Below, piece by piece: positions 22,664 through 58,520 of a DNA stretch of 64,000 nucleotides. Numbering within the stretch: the first letter of the stretch is position 1; every line of letters begins with the position of its first letter. The DNA comes from Loxodes magnus (taxonomy: Eukaryota; Ciliophora; Karyorelictea; Loxodida; Loxodidae): positions 1 to 64,000 of the forward strand of contig CAMPDV010001788.1 of NCBI GenBank assembly GCA_946699065.1. The letters are read 5' to 3'. The notes below the pieces were generated by a model. The model was not told the DNA's origin, ran no database searches, and worked only from the letters and a program-made list of their open reading frames with translations. Both the position numbers and the translations under genes were made by a program.

Positions 22664-23881
22664 ATGAATTAAAATATTTTGAGTACATTGGATATTAGTT
22701 TAAACGTTTTTTTGTAAAATTTGGTTCATTAATTCTGCCGATAAATTTGAAGTTCATCTTAGATGACATTAGCTCTTGGAATGTCTCTAACTAATGATAT
22801 GTTATAGTAATATCCTTCAATATCTGTGATTCTTCAGCAATATTTGTAAAAAAGTTGCTTCAAATTATTGTGTGAACATGCTTAAATTTATAAAGCATAT
22901 TGCTTTTCATGGTAAGAACTGATCCAAGGTGGAGAATTTTGCTCTAGTTGAGAAAATTATATTAAACCTTCTCGATAAAGAAAATTTTATCCTTCAAAAT
23001 TCGTAAATAAAGCAAGGTATCTCAGAACTTCCTAAAAATTTCTACCTACTAAACTATGTAGACTCAATCTTAGGATAATTTGCCGAGATCGAAAATATCT
23101 ATACAATCGATGAATTACCACAGTACTTGAAAGATTTAAAGGAGATCTTTACTCTCTAGTAGAGCTCTTCAGAACTTTTAATTTAATTCAAGGATTATTC
23201 ATAATATTTAGCTGGTTCAATTAACCTTCATGTGCTATTAAGTAATATATTACACTACTTTTAGACAACTTAAAATTTTAATTATGTAAATTCTACTCTC
23301 TTGCATATTTTTCTAAGTTAAAATCGAACATCACAGAAGAAAGTATTAATTTGAATGATACCTAGAAGACTAAATTTAAAAGGGAATTTTTATCTACTAA
23401 GTATAAGGAAGCTAGTATTTAATAATCCGATGAGAACGTTTCTAAAGATAAATAAATTAACTATATTCTACCTTTATTAGGTTCAGCACGATTAATTAAA
23501 AACCAAAATTTTATTGTTAAAATAGTTTAGAAACATTTCTGGCTTCGTTTAATCTCTTTGTCACTTTTTTCTCAGTTTTTAAATAAAAATTTATTACCTT
23601 TACTCTCAAAATTATTGTATTTCTTTCCGAAGGCTAAAGTTAAAAGGGAATAGAATAAAATCCAATTATTGTGCCAAATTTCACAATCGAATTTATCTTT
23701 CTACTTAAAGATATAATTTGTCTCAGTCATGTCATCAGGTTTTTCCAATTCCTAACCAGATAAACGACATAGAGGAGGATTACTCTGAGACTTGGACTTC
23801 AGCACCTTAGTTATATTCTGGTATCGATCGAGAGAATTCTCAAATAAGTAAGGCTTATCACACAAGTGTACTTTCTTATTT
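22664..23881 (+). CDS. Unknown protein, left-hand gene of duplicated segment (copy A)
   Basis: The clearest coding stretch is around 22,950-23,250 (ELPKNFYLLNYVDSIL, ENIYTIDELPQYLKDLKEIF). It continues to about 23.8 kb after one or two frame breaks (NITEESINLNDTQKTKFKR, IQQSDENVSKDKQI). Coding is supported by comparison with copy B at 51.3 kb: several differences fall at third codon positions (GAA/GAG, GCT/GCA, TCC/TCT, TTA/CTA). The start is unresolved; 22664 is an ATG but lies in another frame. The region 22.7-22.9 kb is ambiguous between frames. No domain is recognised. Confidence 0.45.
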
Positions 23882-23884
23882 ATT

Positions 23885-24486
23885 ATTATTTATTTATTAT
23901 GATTGAACTTTTATCAAAAGTATAGGGGTTATAATGGCCTGATTTGATATATGTGTATAGGAAAGTTTAGTAGTTGGTAGTATGTATTTTAGAGTGTATG
24001 ATAGTAATAATGACTTGTATTTAGATATAGGTTAATGATAATTTGATTATAGTTTTGATTAGATAAATAGTAATCTGTACTTGTATAATTTAAATATAAG
24101 GATATATTAAAGATAGTTTTTTGACATTGTTGAATATGTTTTGGTATGTTATAAGCTGTATGTTAGTATCTGAATAATGATAATATTTGAATAATAGATT
24201 TTTAAAGATGTTTAGATAAAATTTGATTCTTTATTTATTTCAGCTTTAAAAAGAGCTAGTAAGGAAAATAATCTTTATTGTCAACTATATAGCTATAACT
24301 ACATTACCATATCAACATCATATATACACTTAAACATACAAAAAAACTTATAAAAATACAACATTAATAAGTATAGATTAACCATATTAATAAGTAGTAA
24401 CATATTTACTATAGATATTTAAACTACTTACATATAAAACTATATTTATTATCAATAATATTAATCATATCAATATTATTATTATC
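23885..24486. other. Strand-asymmetric intergenic DNA
   Basis: The plus strand is G/T-rich at about 23,920-24,240 and C/A-rich at about 24,285-24,480. Both halves match copy B at 52,040-52,640 without a visible difference. It probably holds the 3' ends of the plus-strand unknown gene and the minus-strand RING-kelch gene. Confidence 0.4.
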
Positions 24487-25932
24487 TCAGTTATCCCCTT
24501 TAACACTTCTATAACTCAACTTTTCTAAATCAATCCTCATTATTGAAATTCTTTTCTATTCATAAGCAAAAACATATCCATAGACACCTCTTATTTTTAT
24601 CTCTGTTAAAGCTGCAACATCTTTAAAAATTTAACTTTATTGCCATTATTCTTTGTTTCTTTTATATATTCTTCTTGAAAATTCTACTGTAGAAAAAAAT
24701 TTTATACCTCCAAATACGACAAAAGGTTCTAAAGAAACTATAAGACGAGCAACAGCTTCAGGAAGATTCAAATTTTACTTACTCCATCTATCATTCTATA
24801 TGTTATACTTTCATATATCTTTTAAAGTTTATCCTTTCTAATTTAAACCTCCAATTGAATAAATGTTTTATTCATCTTTATCTACTACCAAAGTTTAGTA
24901 TGCTATTAAGAATGGAAATTAAGAGTATTTTTATCATTTACTTTAGTTTCCTATCTTTAACTTTTCTACTGATTATAGCATTTGATTTATACCAGTACCT
25001 CCTCCAACCACATAAAGATAATTTTAAGCTGCTGCTAATCCAAAATCATATCTTCCCTCATTTAGATCACTAAGTTTTGTATTATTACCTTCGAAATCGA
25101 ACTATCAAGTTTCTTTTATTCCTTTATTTTAATTTTAGTTATTTCCTCCAATTAAATATAACTTATTTTAATATTCTATACTTTTACTAAGTACTGGAAT
25201 TATAATTTAAACTTAGACTTATTGTAATTTCTCAGTTTAAATGTTAAATAAGCTTAATTTTTAAATTCCTCAATTAAAAAAGTGAATATAGTTAGATTGA
25301 ATAAAATGTTGCTACTAGGTTAGTTTATGTTAATTAGTCTGTTTAGTGTTTAACTGTTGTTACTTTGTATTGTATTATAGTTAGTTTCTTATTTGTGTGA
25401 TATAATTTGAAGTTAATTTAGGGTTTAGTACTAAAGGTGGTTATATAGTGGAATATAGTTAGACTGTTATAGTTTGGATTTGAGTTGGTTTTAGATATTA
25501 GTAAATAGGGAATTAGGATGATTGTATAATATTTTAGTGTTATTAGTTGTAGTTAATGGTAGTGTATTGGATGATATTAGTATATGGTATAATGAGAGTA
25601 TTAGTAATGTTAGATAATTTGGTTGTAATGGTTTTAGATTTTTGCATAATTTACTTCCTTATCTCTTTTAATTTCTATCTAGCATCTTAAATCTTTTATA
25701 TGTATTATTAGTTTTAAAATATCATTCTTATTAAATCACTTTCTTAAGGTAAGTCTTCAAATCTAAAATGGAATCCTTTTTAACAAATAGGACATTACAT
25801 TATGCCTTATAATCAGAACTGAGTATTCAAACACAAACCACAGTAAATATGTCCACAAGGTAAGACAGTTGGAAGAGCATTAGTTAAGTTGTAATCTTCT
25901 TAGCAGATTAAGCATTTTGGTAACGCTTACAT
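24487..25932 (-). CDS. RING-finger / kelch protein, probable E3 ubiquitin ligase (copy A)
   Basis: The ATG at 25932 opens a 482-codon frame to TGA 24487-24489 without any frame break. Residues ~7-55 form a C3HC4 RING finger: CLICQEDYN, PCGHIYCGLC, then CPICQKGF. RING fingers recruit E2 enzymes. A short Lys/Gln-rich helix (DARQKLKEIRKQIMQ) leads into a ~100-residue Asn/Gln/Thr/Ile linker that is C/A-rich on this strand. Kelch blades follow from ~220 to 480 (LYLIGGN, LYVVGGG, IYSIGGL, FVVFGGI, each with downstream aromatic and Trp positions). The architecture suggests that the propeller selects the substrate and the RING ubiquitylates it; that is inference. Copy B has exactly the same length. 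The linker could be an intron, but it keeps frame in both copies. Confidence 0.85.
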
Positions 25933-26399
25933 TTTTATTATTATTTAGATTAAAAAAGCTTATAAAGGTAATTTATAACAGTTACCATCAAAAATTATAA
26001 TTAACCATTATAAATTCAAATATCTATCATTACATACATACTACAATATTAACCTCTTATATCAAGTACCTATCTACAATCCGCACCAATACATTTTGCT
26101 AAATTTAAAAAACCAACCAGCTTTACAACTTAATCACATTTTTTATTCTATAAATAACAAAAACATCTCTATCCTAAAATCTTTAAAAACTACTAGGAGC
26201 AATGCACTAAAAAAGGGACACAATCTTTAACTAATCTTAATATCAAAAAAAGTAGCTAAGTTAGAACATTTACTAAGACTAAAGCTCTTTGAAAATCTTT
26301 AGAATGTAGGAAGAAAAGAATGAGAAAAAAATAGACGAGAATACGAAGCTCGGAACTGTTAAAAGAGAAAAAGTTAACGATTTAAAATTTTTTAGAAGA
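25933..26399. other. 5' flank of RING-kelch gene A
   Basis: The upstream region is C/A-rich on the plus strand at 25,975-26,130, hence G/T-rich on the gene's own strand just before its ATG. It matches copy B until about 26,335. No promoter motif can be named. Confidence 0.35.
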
Positions 26400-28130
26400 T
26401 AAGAACTACAATCAAAGACTCATTCTAGCAGAAATGCAAACAAATTAAATTATTTTGCATTTCTCAGAAATCTTAAGTAAGAATATGGTAAAAGAAATGA
26501 GAGTGAGGAAATCATTAGAAAAGGCAGAATTGAGTTTTTATTCAAAGTCCTACTCACAATCTTCTAGGGACTTCAGCTTTATCATAATGAGACTCCTTTT
26601 GAGAACTAGACCAAAGCTCTCAAGTAGAAACTATTTTTGACTCAATGTTCAACCTTAAAATCTTCCGCTTTTAAAATTTATTACTAATAATTTAAGAATT
26701 TGATATAAATATGAAACAGAATGGAGTTTTTAGTCAAAGTTCTTCTTTCAATTTTTAAGTTTTTCAAACTATATCCTGACAAAAATTTTTAAAACTAAGC
26801 ACTAGCTCTCAAGTGAAATGGAGTCTATAAAATAAATTGTACTTTCATTCTTTAAGTACTTAAGCTAATTCGTAACTCAGACGTATTTTGAGAAAAAGAA
26901 CAGAGCAATCCAGAAAATGGATTGCAAACTTAAATTCTTCTTAACGTATTGAAGTTACTTAAGCTTATCATCTATCCAGAACTTTTGAGAACTTGATAAG
27001 AGCTCGCAAGGATAACGGATTCAAAACTTAAATTTCATCTTACAGTTTTTTAGATTTCAGCACTTTCGATAATCAGATTATGCTTTAGAAAACAATCGAG
27101 CTCTAAAAGATACGGATTCCATACTTGAAGTTCTTCTTAAAGTCTTACAGTTCATAAACTTTAACTCTACCAGACTTTTTTTGAGATTTTGATTAGAGCT
27201 CTGAAGGATAATGGATTCCGTACTTAAAATTCTTCTTACAGTCTTTTAGTACTTAGCATTTTCTATTCTCAGTTCAAATTTGGAGAATTTGATCAGAGTT
27301 TTCAAGGATTAACCGATTTCAAACTTAAAGTTCATCTTACAGTCATTTTGTATTTTCCGCGCTTTCAAAATTAAGATATAACTTTAGAAAGAGATCCGAT
27401 GTCTCTTTTTGGAAAACTTGATTAGAGCTATAGACGATTAACGGATTCCAAATTTAAATTTCTCTTACAGATTTTTAATATTTAAGCACTCTCGATTCTC
27501 AGTTCAATGGCATGATTTAAAAAAATCTAAAGGATAACGGATTCCTAACTTAATTTCATCTTAAAGTATTTTTGTATGTCCGTGTTTTCGATGTTCAGAT
27601 ATAACTATAGAAATGGATAAGAGCTTTCAAGGATAATGGCCTCCAAACTTAAAGATTTTCTTACAGTCTTACAGTTCTATAGTTTAATCTCTACCCAGAC
27701 TTTTTTGAGAGCAGAATCAGAGTTCATAAGGATTAACGGATTCCAAACTTAAAATTCTTCTTTAATCTTTTATTTTTTCATCATTTTCGATATTCAGATT
27801 AATTATTATTTTTATCAGAGCTCTCAATGGAAACGGATTCGAATCTTATATTTTTTCTTACAGTCTTTTAGTTCTTCAGCTTTAACTTTTCCCAGATTTT
27901 TTGGAATAACTTGATCAGTACTCTCAAGGAAAACCGATTCCAAACTTAAAGTTCATCTTATAGTCTTTTAGTATTTCACCACTTTCGATATTCAGATTAA
28001 ATTTGAATAAAAGATCATAGCTCCTATGTATGACGAATTCTTTACTTAAAGTTTGTTAACAGTTTTTTTAAGTTTATCAGCATTATGTTTGTCAGATTTT
28101 TTAGATTTAATGCCGAACGCACGTTTATCT
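26400..28130 (+). repeat. ~100-bp tandem repeat array (A)
   Basis: About a dozen degenerate units of roughly 95-105 bp follow one another. Each carries a core like CAAGGATAACGGATTCC, then AACTTAAAGTTC, CTTACAGTCTTTTAG, and CACTTTCGATATTCAG, and ends near TTGATCAGAGCTCT. Unit length is not constant, so reading frames drift and no single frame covers the array convincingly, although short leucine-rich readings occur. The first ~480 bp hold more diverged units. A related array ends copy B. It could be a minisatellite or a decayed repeat protein gene. Confidence 0.75.
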
Positions 28131-52034: not shown

Positions 52035-52644
52035 TATTTATTATTATTTATTTATTATGATTGAACTTTTATCAAAAGTATAGGGGTTATAATGGCCTGA
52101 TTTGATATATGTGTATAGGAAAGTTTAGTAGTTGGTAGTATGTATTTTAGAGTGTATGATAGTAATAATGACTTGTATTTAGATATAGGTTAATGATAAT
52201 TTGATTATAGTTTTGATTAGATAAATAGTAATCTGTACTTGTATAATTTAAATATAAGGATATATTAAAGATAGTTTTTTGACATTGTTGAATATGTTTT
52301 GGTATGTTATAAGCTGTATGTTAGTATCTGAATAATGATAATATTTGAATAATAGATTTTTAAAGATGTTTAGATAAAATTTGATTCTTTATTTATTTCA
52401 GCTTTAAAAAGAGCTAGTAAGGAAAATAATCTTTATTGTCAACTATATAGCTATAACTACATTACCATATCAACATCATATATACACTTAAACATACAAA
52501 AAAACTTATAAAAATACAACATTAATAAGTATAGATTAACCATATTAATAAGTAGTAACATATTTACTATAGATATTTAAACTACTTACATATAAAACTA
52601 TATTTATTATCAATAATATTAATCATATCAATATTATTATTATC
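52035..52644. other. Strand-asymmetric intergenic DNA (copy B)
   Basis: This repeats 23,885-24,486 without a visible difference: G/T-rich at about 52,080-52,400, then C/A-rich at about 52,440-52,640. Confidence 0.4.
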
Positions 52645-54090
52645 TCAGTTATCCCCTTTAACACTTCTATAACTCAACTTTTCTAAATCAATCCTCATTA
52701 TTGAAACTCTTTCCTATTCATAAGCAAAAGCATATCCATAGACACCTCTTATTTTCATCTCTGTTAAAGCTGCAACATCTTTAAAAATTTAACTTTATTG
52801 CCATTATTATTTGTTTCTTTTATATATTCTTCTTGAAAATTCTTTCGTAAATTGATTTTTTAAACCTCCAAATATGACAAAAGGTTCTAAAGAAACTATA
52901 GGATAAGCAACAGCTTCAGGAAGATTCAAATTTTACTTACTCCATCTATCATTCTATATGTTATACTTTCATATATCTTTTAAAGTTCATCCTTTCTAAT
53001 TTACACCTCCAATTGAATAAATGTTTTATTCATCTTTATCTACAATTAAAGTTTACCAACCTATTTAAAATGGAAATTAAGAGCATTTTTATCATTTACT
53101 TTAGTTTCCTATCTTTAACTTTTCTACTGATTTTAAACCTTGATTTATACTAATAAGTCCTCCAACCACATAAAGATAATTTTAAGCTGCTGCTAATCCA
53201 AATTAATATCTTCCCTCATTTAGATCACTAAGTTTTGTATTATTACCTTCGAAATCGAACTATCAAGTTTCTTTTATTCCTTTCTTTTAATTTTAGTTTT
53301 ATCCTCCAATTAAATATAACTTATTTTAATATTCTATACTTTAATTGCCTTCATAAATTATAATTTAAACTTAGATTTATCGTAATTACTCAGTTTAAAT
53401 ATTAAATAAACTTAATTTTTAAATTCCTCAATTAAAAAAGTGAATATAGTTAGATTGAATAAAATGTTGCTACTAGGTTAGTTTATGTTAATTAGTCTGT
53501 TTAGTGTTTAACTGTTGTTACTTTGTATTGTATTATAGTTAGTTTCTTATTTGTGTGATATAATTTGAAGTTAATTTAGGGTTTAGTACTAAAGGTGGTT
53601 ATATAGTGGAATATAGTTAGACTGTTATAGTTTGGATTTGAGTTGGTTTTAGATATTAGTAAATAGGGAATTAGGATGATTGTATAATATTTTAGTGTTA
53701 TTAGTTGTAGTTAATGGTAGTGTATTGGATGATATTAGTATATGGTATAATGAGAGTATTAGTAATGTTAGATAATTTGGTTGTAATGGTTTTAGATTTT
53801 TGCATAATTTACTTCCTTATCTCTTTTAATTTCTATCTAGCATCTTAAATCTTTTATATGTATTATTAGTTTTAAAATATCATTCTTATTAAATCACTTT
53901 CTTAAGGTAAGTCTTCAAATCTAAAATGGAATCCTTTTTAACAAATAGGACATTACATTATGCCTTATAATCAGAACTGAGTATTCAAACACAAACCACA
54001 GTAAATATGTCCACAAGGTAAGACAGTTGGAAGAGCATTAGTTAAGTTGTAATCTTCTTAGCAGATTAAGCATTTTGGTAACGCTTACAT
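52645..54090 (-). CDS. RING-finger / kelch protein, probable E3 ubiquitin ligase (copy B)
   Basis: The ATG at 54090 opens 482 codons to TGA 52645-52647, the same length as copy A and unbroken. The RING finger (CLICQEDYN, PCGHIYCGLC, CPICQKGF) and the Asn/Gln/Thr linker are identical to copy A at nucleotide level by eye. The kelch half, from about residue 227, differs by about 60 substitutions, many in short patches beside the Gly-Gly motifs: GGLISINQGL for GGGTGINQML, GGLKNQFTKEF for GGIKFFSTVEF, VAYPIVS for VARLIVS, IIIYEGNQSIEY for IIIPVLSKSIEY. Several kelch positions look more canonical here (the GGVNQKGW blade). The likely role is the same E3 scaffold with different substrate choice, by inference. 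Confidence 0.85.
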
Positions 54091-54559
54091 TTTTATTATT
54101 ATTTAGATTAAAAAAGCTTATAAAGGTAATTTATAACAGTTACCATCAAAAATTATAATTAACCATTATAAATTCAAATATCTATCATTACATACATACT
54201 ACAATATTAACCTCTTATATCAAGTACCTATCTACAATCCGCACCAATACATTTTGCTAAATTTAAAAAACCAACCAGCTTTACAACTTAATCACATTTT
54301 TTATTCTATAAATAACAAAAACATCTCTATCCTAAAATCTTTAAAAACTACTAGGAGCAATGCACTAAAAAAGGGACACAATCTTTAACTAATCTTAATA
54401 TCAAAAAAAGTAGCTAAGTTAGAACATTTACTAAGACTAAAGCTCTTTGAAAATCTTTAGAATGTAGGAAGAAAAGAATGAGAAAAAATAGACGAGAATA
54501 CGAAGCTCGGAATTGCTAAAAGAGAAAAATTTAACGATTTCAAAAATTTTTAGAAGAAA
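54091..54559. other. 5' flank of RING-kelch gene B
   Basis: It matches the copy A flank up to about 54,494, including the C/A-rich stretch. No promoter motif can be named. Confidence 0.35.
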
Positions 54560-55985
54560 AGAACTACAGTCAAAGACACTTTCAAGAAGAAATGCAAATA
54601 AATAAAATTACTTTGCATTTCTCAGAAATCTTAAGTAAGAATCTGGTAAAAGGAATGAGAATGAGGAAATCCTTAGACAGGGCAGAATGGAGTTTTTATT
54701 CAAAGTCTTACTTAAAATCTTCTAGGAACTTCAGCTTTATCATAATGAGACTCATTTTGAGAACTAGATCCAAGCTCTCAAGCAGCAACAGTTTTAAACT
54801 TAATGTTCAAACATATAATCTTCAGCTTTTAAAATTTATTAATAATAATTTTTAGAACTGGATATAAATATGAAACAGAATGGAGTTTTTAGTAAAAGTT
54901 CATCTTTCAATTTTTAAGTTTTTCAACTATATCCCGACAAAAAATTTTAGAACTAAACACTAGCTCTCAATTGAAATGGAATCTATAAAATAAGTTGTAC
55001 TTTCATTCTTTAAGTACTTACGCTAATTCGTAACTCAGACGTATTTTGAGAAAAAGAACAAAGCAATCTAGAAAATGGATTCCAAACTTAAATTCTTCAT
55101 AACGTATTGAAGTTCTTAAGCTTATCATCTATCCAGACATTTTTTGAAAACTTGATCAGAGCTCACAAGGATAACGGATTCAAAACTTAAAGTTCATCTT
55201 ACAGTTTTTTAGATTTCAGCACTTTCGATATTGAGATTATGCTTTAGATAACAATCGAGCTCTAAAGGATAACGAATTCGCTACATAAAGTTCTTTTTAA
55301 AGTCTTAAAGTTCATAAGCATTAAATCTATACAGACTTTTTTGGAGAGGTTGATCAGTACTCTCAAGGAAAACGGATTCCTAATTTAAATTTCTTCTTAC
55401 AGTCTTTTAGTACTTAGCATTTTCGATTCTCAGTTCAAATTTGGAGAATTTGATCAGAGCTTTCAAGGATTAACGATCTCCAAACTTAAAGTTTCTCTTA
55501 TAGATTTTTAGTATTTCAGCACTTTGCATATTGAGATTAAATTTAAGGAAAAGATCCGAGCTCGCAAGGATAACGGATTGCAATCTTAAAGTTCTTCTTA
55601 AAGTCTTACAGTTCTATAGCTTAATCTCTACCCAGACTTTTTCGAGAGCAGTATCAGAGTTCTTAAGGATTAACGGATTCCAAACTTAAGTTTCTCTTAC
55701 AGATTTTTAATATTTAAGCACTCTCGATTCTCAGTTCAATGGCAGGATTTGAACAGAGCTCTTAAGGAAAACGGATTCCAAACTTTAAGTTCATCTTACG
55801 GTCTTTTAGTGTTTCAGCACTTTCGAAATTCAGATATAACTATAGAAAGAGATCCGAGCACGCAACGGAAACGGATTGCCACTTAAAGTTCTTCTTACAA
55901 TTTTATAGTAGTTAAGCTTTTTATCAGCAAATTTTTTGGTGAAATTGAAAAGAGCTTTTAACTATTAACAGATTCATAACTTAAA
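54560..55985 (+). repeat. ~100-bp tandem repeat array (B)
   Basis: This is the same unit as the array at 26.4-28.1 kb (CAAGGATAACGGATTCC core), with about nine recognisable units. It is shorter than array A and diverged from it, with units gained, lost or rearranged. In this copy one frame stays leucine-rich over several units (NLKFLLQIF, NLKVLLKVLQFY), but the phase is not kept across the array. Confidence 0.72.
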
Positions 55986-55989
55986 ATTT

Positions 55990-58520
55990 CTCTTACAGAT
56001 CTAAGAAGTTATTATGATTCAATTAAATGTCTAACTACGGAAATTCTTTTATCTATCAAATAAGGTAAGTTTGACTTAGATATACTAAACTAAACTGAAG
56101 ATAAATTTATATTATTAAGATTCCTAAATAAGTCATTGTTTCAACAACTCCTATCATATACTTATATTCATCAAAATTTTGATTATCTAATCTATATTTT
56201 CCACATAATAAAAATTAATATTCTAGCAATATAACTTAAATCAACTATCATATGTTCTTTTAGGAGTTAGAAAATAGAAGTTTTCTACATGAAGATAAAA
56301 GGAATAAATTAATCCTTTAAGATCATATAAAATAGAATCTTATTATATACTCTTTAGTTGTTTCTAGTATCTATACAATAATCAACGATAAAGATTTAAA
56401 CTAATATACTCATCAACAATCTTATAACCTTAATTTTAAGCTTGCTTATTAAACTTTAAGAACAATAATAAATGAAGATTCTAAATTAGAGCAAAATATT
56501 TGAAATGTATGTACCATATGGACTTAAAATTTGACTTATAATGTGAGTATAGCTTTAATTTAATAAGCCTTAAATATTTACTAAATAATTTATAGAAAAA
56601 ACATTAAAAATAAGATAAAAATGCTTAACTCTTTAGAATTCCCTTAATATAGTTGCTGATTGACTCCTTTTCAACTATAGACTAATTGTATTATTTTATT
56701 TTGAAATGTTTTCTATTTTAAGATTTTAAATCTATCTAATAGATTGAAATAGCTTCTTCTTTATTAGATGATAGAAGTATAAAATAAAAAAGTGTAATAA
56801 ACAAGGAACATGATATCCTTTAAAGCATATACTAATTTATAATAGTATTTAAATTTAGCTATTTTACCTTTAATATTTGTTTATAAACCTTCATCACTTA
56901 TAATTAAATCCATCACTAAATAACTAATTTTCATTTTGTAAATAAGATAAGTGTCATTTTATTCGCTTAATCTCCTTTTCTATTTATTATGTCAAAGAGT
57001 AACTTAATTATATACCTTATTTATTTAGTATATCATTAACACTCAAAAAGAGATTGATAGATATATTCAGTCTTATTTACAAACTAATGATCTGATTTTT
57101 TGTTTATTTAAATAGCTGTGAACTAAAGTTTTATGGCTATTTGACTGAATTATTATAAATTTCTTAGTATTAAAATTTTATATTTGCCTCTCTTTACTAT
57201 ATACCGTTTACTATCTTATATACCATTTTGGTTTTCATTATTAATTTAGCAAAATTTAAAAGCTTTAAAGTATTAATTACTCTGAAATGAATTTCTCTTA
57301 AAAAGATAAAATAAGAAAAGCTTAAGCTTCAAATATAAAGTGTAGAGTATTATATATCTATATTTAATTAAATTAGAAATTTACATCTTAAAGGATTACA
57401 AGATCTCCTAACCTTCCTATTAAGTATATTTTTCCCTAACTATATGCATGTCTGATAGATTTTAATATCTCCTATTTTTTAATTTCTCTTTTGATTTAAG
57501 TTAATAGAGTGATTATCTTTAGACCTCATAATGGATGACAAAACTTTGTAGGTATGATTTAGCTTAGCAATTTGATAAATAAGCCTTGCTTATTTATAAT
57601 TATTATGGTTTGTATTAGTTTTGCTTATAAACAAATAGCATATTATATACATACTCTATCTAAAGTATTAATATTCTTAACTGATTTATTCTTATCCTAG
57701 CACTATGTAATATTCTAATTCACTTGGGATATTAATAATTAAAATTACAGGATTAGTCGATCTATAAAGGTAGAAAATAGAATTTTAAAGTATAAGTAAT
57801 ATCTAAAATTAAGAGTTATATAAGCAATTAGCAGTATACATTTAATTAGTATACCTTAACTACTAGTATATTATGATTTATTCCTACTAATACTTTAGTA
57901 TTATAAAAGAAATACTTGCTAAGCATAGACTATTTACTTTAGTTAAGAGTTTATTTACAGTTATTCATATCTTAACAATAGTAGGATTAGATTTCTATAT
58001 AGACTAAAAACTTAAAAAATGCTTCTTTCTTATTTAATCACTTTTATATTATTAATGAATCACTATGCTCTCTATCTATATCACTCAATATACCAATAAT
58101 CATATTTTAATACAACACTGCTAGCTTATAGATATATAGGCTTTCTATTTAAAGTACTACGATTGTAAGCAATACTTAATTAACTATAGCAGTTTAATTT
58201 CAGGCCTGTTAATACTTCTATAGTTATCAGCATAAATCTTTTATAAAATAGAAGGTTATAGAGTAAGGGAGTCTAATGTAAAGTTATATAGATGTTCATT
58301 TTGTATTCTAATATCAGTTAAAACATACCTTTTATATATTAATCAGCATGATTGAAGCTTATGCTTTATTGGAGTTTACCAATTTAATTATTTAACTTTA
58401 GAGCGTCACAATTAAAATTGCTTAGTTATAGATAAAAAGGAATCCATTAAAGAATTAGGTAATTAAGTATATTCCTTAGTTTGCTTGCTTAATTATCTAA
58501 TTTAAATAGATACAATAATT
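55990..58520. other. 2.5 kb without a recognised gene
   Basis: This is TA-step-rich DNA like 5.2-12.1 kb. No domain, RNA or repeat was recognised on either strand. Confidence 0.4.

What the first reader, a model, noticed from the sequence alone, without database searches (positions are those of the whole stretch)
24487..25932. RING-kelch twins: substitutions confined to the kelch propeller
Aligned by eye, copies A and B show no difference over at least 600 bp on the 3' side, over the RING and linker, or over 400 bp upstream. Between 24,549 and 25,252 there are about 60 substitutions with no indels. About 37 of them lie in four tight patches of 9-10 changes within 20-35 bp, mostly non-synonymous and beside the Gly-Gly blade motifs. 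Normal divergence would not spare synonymous and non-coding sites on both sides. It looks like patch-wise replacement of binding loops (gene conversion from a donor family, or targeted mutagenesis) in a presumed substrate-recognition domain.
Basis: seen in the sequence. Interest (0 to 1): 0.87.

Follow-up and report, generated by a model that had tools for sequence, protein, structure and literature searches.

The report
Thousand-copy hypervariable RING-kelch gene family
The two "twin" genes belong to a family of roughly a thousand assembled copies, probably in the ciliate Loxodes magnus, that share one nearly unchanging ubiquitin-ligase-like half and differ at about twenty positions on the presumed binding face of the other half, which looks like a large recognition repertoire in a single-celled organism.

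Summary
Copies A and B are identical over 673 bp and 1,072 bp on either side of 59 substitutions (no indels), 37 of them in four tight patches. But this identity is bounded by 7-9% divergence, and A and B are two of hundreds. The host is probably the ciliate Loxodes magnus.
One RING 36-mer occurs exactly 1,059 times in the genome. About 340 copies are type 1, the window's type; of 15 others read, 14 form a second type.
In both types codons 1-144 show no synonymous variation, whereas kelch silent sites differ by about 4% or 11%. About 21 codons on the presumed ligand face carry 3-10 residues each. With near-duplicates dropped, all 36 type-1 and 13 type-2 copies have different combinations, and the types share 16 of their top 21 positions.
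Kelch linkage falls near background within about 16 bp. The spectrum shows no adenine bias.
Best reading: a recognition-type RING-kelch repertoire shaped by ectopic gene conversion plus diversifying selection. Ligase activity, expression and ligands are inferred. Nearest in kind: Podospora HNWD genes and fish finTRIMs.

The parts
24487..25932 (-). Copy A: RING-kelch gene, 481 codons plus presumed TGA stop (TAA/TAG=Q, TGA=W)
   Evidence: zf-RING_UBOX 37.1 bits (cut-off 25.2) at residues 7-48; Kelch_1 50.6 bits (cut-off 20.1)
52645..54090 (-). Copy B: RING-kelch gene, 481 codons plus presumed TGA stop
24484..25499 (-). Variable region V of copy A: kelch domain and second half of the linker, codon 145 to 3 nt past the stop
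   Evidence: 204 variable columns of 1,016, no gap column, in 26 copies
52642..53657 (-). Variable region V of copy B (A coordinates + 28,158)
25500..26050 (-). Constant block C5 of copy A: 118 bp upstream, start codon, RING and linker to codon 144
   Evidence: 1 variable column of 551 in 26 copies
53658..54208 (-). Constant block C5 of copy B
23930..24483 (-). Constant block C3 of copy A: presumed non-coding, directly downstream of the stop
   Evidence: 1 variable column of 554 in 26 copies; 79-mer 23,992-24,070 has 349 exact copies
52088..52641 (-). Constant block C3 of copy B
23300..23875 (.). Outer 3' flank of copy A, diverged between copies (mean pairwise 5.8%)
26301..27000 (.). Outer 5' flank of copy A, diverged between copies (mean pairwise 9.8%)
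26804..28016 (.). Degenerate ~100-bp repeat array 5' of copy A
   Evidence: such an array lies 5' of the gene in 30 of 30 type-1 loci searched
55067..55998 (.). Degenerate ~100-bp repeat array 5' of copy B

Best explanation
A and B are members of a very large family of RING-kelch genes, about 1,060 assembled copies, in a ciliate genome that is probably Loxodes magnus. The protein is predicted to be a one-chain ubiquitin ligase. A near-invariant RING and linker would act on ubiquitin, and a kelch propeller would pick the target. About 21 propeller positions, mainly the residue just after each Gly-Gly, others shortly after it, and the loop leading into each blade, are hypervariable and give nearly every distinct copy its own binding face, while the scaffold is under purifying selection. 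Shown: the copy number in the assembly, the near-invariance of the RING half, the place and extent of the variability, the fine-scale reassortment of variants between copies, and the near-independence of kelch from flanks. Inferred: that ectopic gene conversion does the shuffling and homogenising, that diversifying selection keeps kelch alleles diverse against it, that the proteins are E3 ligases, and that they recognise varied, probably non-self, protein ligands.
For: Copy number: a C5 71-mer has 334 exact matches, 0 in the control; its last 36 bases have 1,059; a C3 79-mer has 349. Of the 100 C5 places listed, 94 pair with a listed C3; 74 have exactly the window spacing, 6 are off by a multiple of 3, 14 are not. 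Constancy: C3+C5 have 2 variable columns of 1,105 against 541 of 1,296 in the outer flanks, P 8e-170 (26 copies). Mean pairwise difference is 0.0001 in C3 and in C5, 0.058 in kelch, 0.058 and 0.098 in the flanks (30 loci). In 10 gap-free extra copies all differences from A in 24,400-25,600 lie in V. Genome heterozygosity is about 0.6% (PMC11441545, passage), so these paralogues are more alike in C3/C5 than typical alleles. Type 2 replicates the coding part: codons 1-144 pS 0.0000, kelch scaffold pS 0.109 (13 copies). Diversification: 21 codons pN 0.455, pN/pS 2.17; scaffold pN/pS 0.11. The first residue after Gly-Gly averages 1.87 bits over four blades, P 1e-4. Types 1 and 2 share 16 of their top 21 sites, P 2.5e-17. 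Recombination: mean r2 is 0.49 at 1-5 bp, 0.13 at 6-15 bp and 0.03-0.04 beyond 16 bp (1/36 = 0.028), where 91-95% of pairs show four gametes. Common synonymous-only sites are also nearly unlinked: 20 of 21 pairs have four gametes, highest r2 0.18 (12 bp) and 0.15 (333 bp). The 3' flank correlates with the farther 5' flank (26,651-27,000; r 0.40, 0 of 300 shuffles), while kelch segments correlate weakly or not with any flank.
Against: Intact donor patches for A and B are mostly absent among 35 other copies, and three patches exist in 25-27 versions of 20-25 bp among 36 copies, extreme for conversion alone. The sharp borders, at codon 145-146 and 3 nt past the stop, and the invariance of C3 in type 1 but not in type 2 (5 copies) are not explained. 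A linkage scale of about 16 bp is shorter than usual conversion tracts (recalled). Overall kelch pN/pS is about 1 in type 1; the signal for selection comes from sites picked because they vary, although the type-2 overlap is independent. The flank test is partial: the 3' flank does not correlate with the nearer 5' segments (26,301-26,650, r 0.01; 26,051-26,300, r -0.20), and some kelch segments do correlate, b with d (0.39), c with a (0.17), e with the 3' flank (0.19) and c with 26,301-26,650 (0.17). Spacing in 14 of 94 pairs suggests frameshifts or other indels, and 2 of 12 extra copies had them.
Confidence: 0.66

Rival explanations
1. Targeted mutagenesis: a dedicated process introduces untemplated changes only into the region V, while C3 and C5 stay untouched; selection then keeps useful changes at the ligand face.
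For: Sharp V borders; 25-27 distinct haplotypes in each of three patches of 20-25 bp among 36 copies. In the near-identical 17-kb pair C508/C4433, 5 of 15 substitutions fall in the 1,016-bp V where about 0.9 are expected; two of the five are unique to one copy among 28.
Against: Mutation spectrum broadly like that of the flanks, no adenine bias. Linkage decays with distance, and codons 145/146 occur only as two linked states, 24:12, as recombination of existing alleles gives. Scaffold pN/pS is 0.11.
Confidence: 0.16
2. No homogenisation: C3 and C5 are held constant by nucleotide-level purifying selection (regulatory or structural RNA), and kelch simply diverged like the flanks.
For: Kelch and flank divergence are of the same order; scaffold is under purifying selection.
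Against: Zero synonymous change in 144 codons within each of two types, yet 3 fixed synonymous differences between them in codons 1-115, so silent sites can change. No unusual RNA fold in C3 (z 0.18 and -0.70) and no Rfam match in 23,300-27,300. Diversity below genome heterozygosity.
Confidence: 0.07
3. Selfish or mobile cassette: the RING-kelch unit spread recently as a mobile element and its copies are by-products.
For: Hundreds of dispersed copies; repeats beside each type-1 copy searched.
Against: Flanks outside the cassette are homologous and diverged by 6-10%; the listed copies lie mostly in same-strand arrays; no Pfam domain above cut-off in 4.9 kb on both sides of A and on the 3' side of B; frame kept in most copies read and scaffold purifying selection.
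Confidence: 0.06
4. Assembly artefact: collapse, chimerism or polishing made the blocks identical or the kelch mosaic.
For: Repeats of this kind are hard to assemble; the authors suspect misassembly of low-complexity repeats (PMC11441545, passage).
Against: PacBio HiFi assembly, Racon polishing with mapping quality 20 or more (section 25). Same coding pattern in two types on many contigs, with variants at the same motif positions.
Confidence: 0.03

Closest known systems
Podospora anserina HNWD / het-d, het-e WD40 non-self recognition genes (PMC1805685, abstract and section headings)
   Same: Beta-propeller recognition domain; four surface residues per repeat under diversifying selection; repeats exchanged between family members.
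   Different: 10 family members there, about 1,060 assembled copies here; WD40 rather than kelch; NLR-type effector (recalled) rather than RING; there repeats are also exchanged within a gene and vary in number, whereas here V has no indel in 37 of 38 distinct type-1 copies.
finTRIM genes of teleost fish (PMC2657112, abstract)
   [quoted passage not shown] gene clusters.
   Different: 84 genes in zebrafish; B30.2 domain and B-box; the abstract reports no constant non-coding block.
Nematode and plant F-box / MATH-BTB adaptor expansions (recalled; only a search listing seen)
   Same: Large lineage-specific families of ubiquitin-ligase substrate receptors with fast-evolving binding domains.
   Different: Adaptors of cullin ligases, not one-chain RING-kelch; no genome-wide zero-diversity block known to me.
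Trypanosome VSG archives and yeast mating-type cassettes (recalled)
   Same: Variable part between constant arms; repeats upstream; cassette conversion.
   Different: No expression site or switching shown here; the protein is a predicted RING protein, not a surface coat.
Diversity-generating retroelements (recalled)
   Same: Variation confined to defined sites of a binding domain.
   Different: No adenine-specific spectrum.

Membership tests
RING-type E3 ubiquitin ligase | C3HC4 zinc ligands | tested here: met
   C7, C10, C26, H28, C31, C34, C47, C50 in P0001; zf-RING_UBOX and zf-RING_5 above cut-off
RING-type E3 ubiquitin ligase | Ubiquitin transfer with an E2 | not testable with these tools
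   needs biochemistry
Kelch beta-propeller protein | Kelch repeats with Gly-Gly doublets | tested here: met
   Kelch_1 50.6 bits, cut-off 20.1; GG at 262, 310, 361, 408; solved kelch proteins match, best E 7e-9
Kelch beta-propeller protein | Closed propeller fold | not tested
   structure prediction switched off
HNWD-like non-self recognition genes | Diversifying selection at propeller-surface residues | tested here: inconclusive
   pN/pS 2.17 at 21 codons, scaffold 0.11 and offset pattern fit; but the sites were chosen by variability and the surface position is by motif, not structure
HNWD-like non-self recognition genes | Repeat units exchanged within a gene, variable repeat number | tested here: not met
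   no indel in V in 26 type-1 copies; blades of one gene differ from each other
HNWD-like non-self recognition genes | STAND/NLR effector architecture (recalled) | tested here: not met
   RING at the N-terminus, no NLR domain by Pfam
finTRIM | RING, B-box and, in long forms, B30.2 | tested here: not met
   RING present; no B-box or B30.2 by Pfam
Diversity-generating retroelement target | Adenine-specific substitutions (recalled) | tested here: not met
   kelch singletons per majority base A .084, C .382, G .165, T .107
Diversity-generating retroelement target | Invariant template repeat and reverse transcriptase nearby (recalled) | tested here: inconclusive
   no RT domain in the three 4.9-kb stretches scanned; genome not scanned for a template
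Cassette-switching system | One active expression site fed by silent copies (recalled) | not testable with these tools
   no expression data

The most novel reading that the evidence does not exclude
A programmed diversification system in a unicellular eukaryote: constant blocks C3 and C5 act as homology arms, and a dedicated process (short-patch conversion, template switching or mutagenesis) rewrites the bounded region V of hundreds of RING-kelch genes, giving each cell lineage a changing repertoire of ubiquitin-ligase specificities, an innate or acquired-like recognition system.
Probability: 0.2. Interest if true: 0.93.

Novelty: new variant of a known kind. Interest (0 to 1): 0.77.

Why it matters
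Large recognition repertoires in protists are, to my knowledge, little described. Here a predicted ubiquitin ligase family of about 1,060 assembled copies has, in the copies read, an effector half more uniform between paralogues than alleles usually are in this genome, beside a recognition half in which 36 of 36 compared copies (near-duplicates dropped) are distinct. It offers a clear natural system for asking how a genome homogenises one part of a gene while diversifying the next, and what a free-living ciliate needs so many target-specific ligases for. [quoted passage not shown]

Tried and rejected
ORFs under the standard code: none of 120 aa or more; the ciliate code is needed. The first multi-copy alignment was wrong because minus-strand loci were not flipped; redone with orientation. 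C3 as a structured RNA: folds no better than shuffles, no Rfam match in 23,300-27,300; the window-wide Rfam scan gave 5 tRNAs only. C3 as a protein-coding gene: one plus-strand frame read, nothing I recognised, no domain search made. DGR: rejected on spectrum. Neighbouring mobile-element genes: no hit above cut-off in three 4.9-kb stretches, one below it (TFIIF_beta). Viral relatives: 3 pattern stretches in viral contigs, none confirmed. Structure prediction: switched off. Literature: no title or abstract start on this family in the listings of nine searches of open PMC papers; the L. magnus genome paper has 0 occurrences of 'kelch' in its main text, supplements not seen. Rows dropped before counts: L024 and L037 (identical to L023 and L036) for 28 copies; also L031 and L038 for 26 copies; L048 and L054 (indels) from the 12 extra type-1 copies, leaving 36; L056 (protein identical to L055) and L065 (outlying type) from the 15 other copies, leaving 13. 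In the spacing count only the first 100 of 334 and of 349 places were visible. On re-checking, the flank correlation proved weaker than first written, so I lowered the main confidence from 0.68 to 0.66 and raised mutagenesis from 0.15 to 0.16.

Full report
What was checked. With the right offset (28,158) the alignment gives 673 identical bases (23,876-24,548), 59 substitutions without indels (24,549-25,252), then 1,072 identical bases (25,253-26,324). The four patches hold 10, 9, 9 and 9 changes. The pair therefore shows two identical blocks set into an older, diverged duplication, with the kelch between them also diverged.

What the gene is. It lies on the minus strand, 24,487-25,932 (A) and 52,645-54,090 (B), and reads as 481 residues when TAA and TAG are glutamine and TGA tryptophan. 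The genome has 705,730,643 bases. The published macronuclear assembly of Loxodes magnus is 706 Mbp (PMC11441545, passage), and karyorelicts use this code, with TGA also as the stop (section 9). The host name is therefore an inference from size and code. Residues 7-50 carry a C3HC4 RING, and from about 250 on there are kelch repeats (Pfam above cut-off), with four Gly-Gly doublets. In the last 20 codons before the presumed stop there is no TAA or TGA, as described for true stops in this species (section 9), and variability ends 3 nt beyond it.

How many there are. A DNA search with 4 kb around copy A scored 32 of 2,842 first-look candidates; 30 became loci L009-L038. A 71-mer in the RING has 334 exact matches in the genome, none for the reversed control. 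Its first 35 bases have 343, its last 36 have 1,059, and with up to three mismatches the 71-mer has 1,082. A 79-mer in the block downstream has 349. So there are about 340 copies of the window's type 1 and about 720 more. Of those I read 15, from 11 contigs: 14 form one type 2 and one (L065) is another type. The listed type-1 copies lie mostly on one strand per contig with a median spacing of 30.6 kb (77 intervals among the first 100 places). Some listed neighbours on contig C132 are 6.9 kb apart. The assembly is not phased and some copies are tandem duplicates or haplotypes (L055 and L056 have identical proteins), so the number of distinct genes is lower than 1,059 by an unknown amount.

Constant blocks. 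In 26 type-1 copies, C3 (23,930-24,483, presumed non-coding, beginning 4 bp after the stop) has 1 variable column of 554, and C5 (25,500-26,050: 118 bp upstream, RING and linker to codon 144) has 1 of 551. The outer flanks have 541 of 1,296, and V (24,484-25,499) has 204 of 1,016 with no gap column. Over the 30 loci the mean pairwise difference is 0.0001 in C3 and in C5, 0.058 in kelch, 0.033 in the second half of the linker, 0.058 and 0.098 in the flanks. Genome-wide heterozygosity is about 0.6% (PMC11441545, passage), so in C3 and C5 these paralogues are more alike than ordinary alleles. Codons 1-144 have no synonymous difference at all.

Variable face. Twenty-one kelch codons carry pN 0.455 and pN/pS 2.17, while the 198 least variable kelch codons have pN/pS 0.11. 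Over the whole kelch the ratio is about 1, so the case for selection rests on sites picked because they vary. They are not spread evenly. The first residue after Gly-Gly averages 1.87 bits over the four blades (P 1e-4), with further peaks at the fourth and seventh residue after the doublet and in the loop about 14 residues before it; most other positions are nearly invariant. From memory, these offsets are where KEAP1-type kelch domains touch their ligands; no structure could be predicted here. With near-duplicates dropped, all 36 type-1 copies compared have different combinations of the 21 residues, differing at 15.4 of 21 on average. Ten of the 36 come from 12 extra regions picked at intervals down the first 100 listed places rather than for similarity to A. 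In those ten, every difference from A lay in V. Of the other two, L048 (near a contig end) had four single-base insertions in V and L054 a 5-base deletion in C5.

Independent replicate. Thirteen type-2 copies were compared. Codons 1-144 have pS 0.0000 and pN 0.0051, while the kelch scaffold has pS 0.109 and the most variable codons pN 0.53. Of the 21 most variable positions, 16 are the same as in type 1 (P 2.5e-17), and all 13 combinations are distinct. Between the types, codons 1-115 show 3 fixed synonymous differences in 68 synonymous sites. So the RING letters can change, but within each type read here they are silent-site uniform. In type 2 the downstream region is not constant (5 copies), so a constant C3 was seen in type 1 only.

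Mosaic structure. Mean r2 between common variants in V is 0.49 within 5 bp, 0.13 at 6-15 bp and 0.03-0.04 beyond 16 bp, where more than nine in ten pairs show all four combinations. Of 21 pairs of common synonymous-only sites, 20 show four combinations; the highest r2 are 0.18 at 12 bp and 0.15 at 333 bp. Distances computed from five kelch segments are mostly uncorrelated with each other and with the flanks; exceptions are segments b and d (r 0.39), a and c (0.17), e with the 3' flank (0.19) and c with 26,301-26,650 (0.17). The 3' flank correlates with the farther 5' flank, 26,651-27,000, across the cassette (r 0.40, 0 of 300 shuffles), but not with the nearer 5' segments (r 0.01 and -0.20). 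So there is partial evidence that outer flanks keep a memory of locus ancestry that the cassette has lost, as exchange without flank exchange, that is gene conversion, predicts.

Mechanism. The best-supported model is ectopic gene conversion among hundreds of loci, which makes C5 and C3 uniform and shuffles V in short patches, combined with diversifying selection at the ligand face that protects V from becoming uniform. At 47 of the 59 A/B sites both alleles are present in other copies. Against a purely templated origin, whole patches of A and B are mostly private among 36 copies, and three patches of 20-25 bp exist in 25-27 versions. In one near-identical 17-kb pair (contigs C508 and C4433), 5 of 15 substitutions fall in V where about 0.9 are expected. 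Three of the five use codon states seen in other copies (codons 145, 146 and 187) and two are unique among 28 (codons 166 and 421). Targeted mutagenesis therefore stays open. The spectrum shows no adenine preference, which speaks against a DGR-like mutator. The sharp borders of V and the constancy of C3 are the least explained facts.

Function. A RING on a near-invariant half and a variable kelch face suggest a set of ubiquitin ligases with many targets. Because variability sits at the presumed contact residues and is shared by two types, recognition of diverse or changing proteins (pathogens, symbionts, food organisms or other individuals) is the likeliest role. Ligase activity, expression and ligands are all untested.

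Comparison. The closest published pattern is the Podospora HNWD family, where WD40 propeller residues on the interaction surface are under diversifying selection while repeats are exchanged within and between members (PMC1805685, abstract). Fish finTRIMs share the near-identical RING with a diversified recognition domain (PMC2657112, abstract). The present family fails the defining architecture of both, so it is a new variant of a known kind. It differs in scale, in the RING-kelch architecture, in zero silent variation in one half of the gene in the copies read, and in linkage that nearly vanishes within about 16 bp. The listings of nine searches of the open PMC library showed no description of it.

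Noticed in passing
genome G000, e.g. contigs C2006, C234, C562: A different kelch-bearing repeat: 21 matches with the same score (30.9 bits) and a 52-residue open frame on many contigs, apparently another multi-copy kelch family.
   Followed up: no
26804-28016 and 55067-55998: A degenerate array of about 100-bp repeats lies upstream of the gene in 30 of 30 type-1 loci searched, reminiscent of repeats upstream of variable antigen genes.
   Followed up: partly
about 23141 (left border of copy A): Copy A shares its outer left flank with only L010 and L016; the other 22 of 25 loci examined, including copy B, share a different one, so the cassette sits in at least two larger contexts.
   Followed up: partly
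L065 (G000:C110:662422-663972): A copy with a distinct linker and intermediate RING sequence, probably a third type of the family.
   Followed up: no
L036 and L037 (contig C944), L055 and L056 (contig C132): Copies on one contig with identical coding sequence (L036/L037) or identical protein (L055/L056), recent duplications or assembly repeats.
   Followed up: no
1117, 2475, 20342, 38220, 43357: Five tRNA genes in 64 kb.
   Followed up: no
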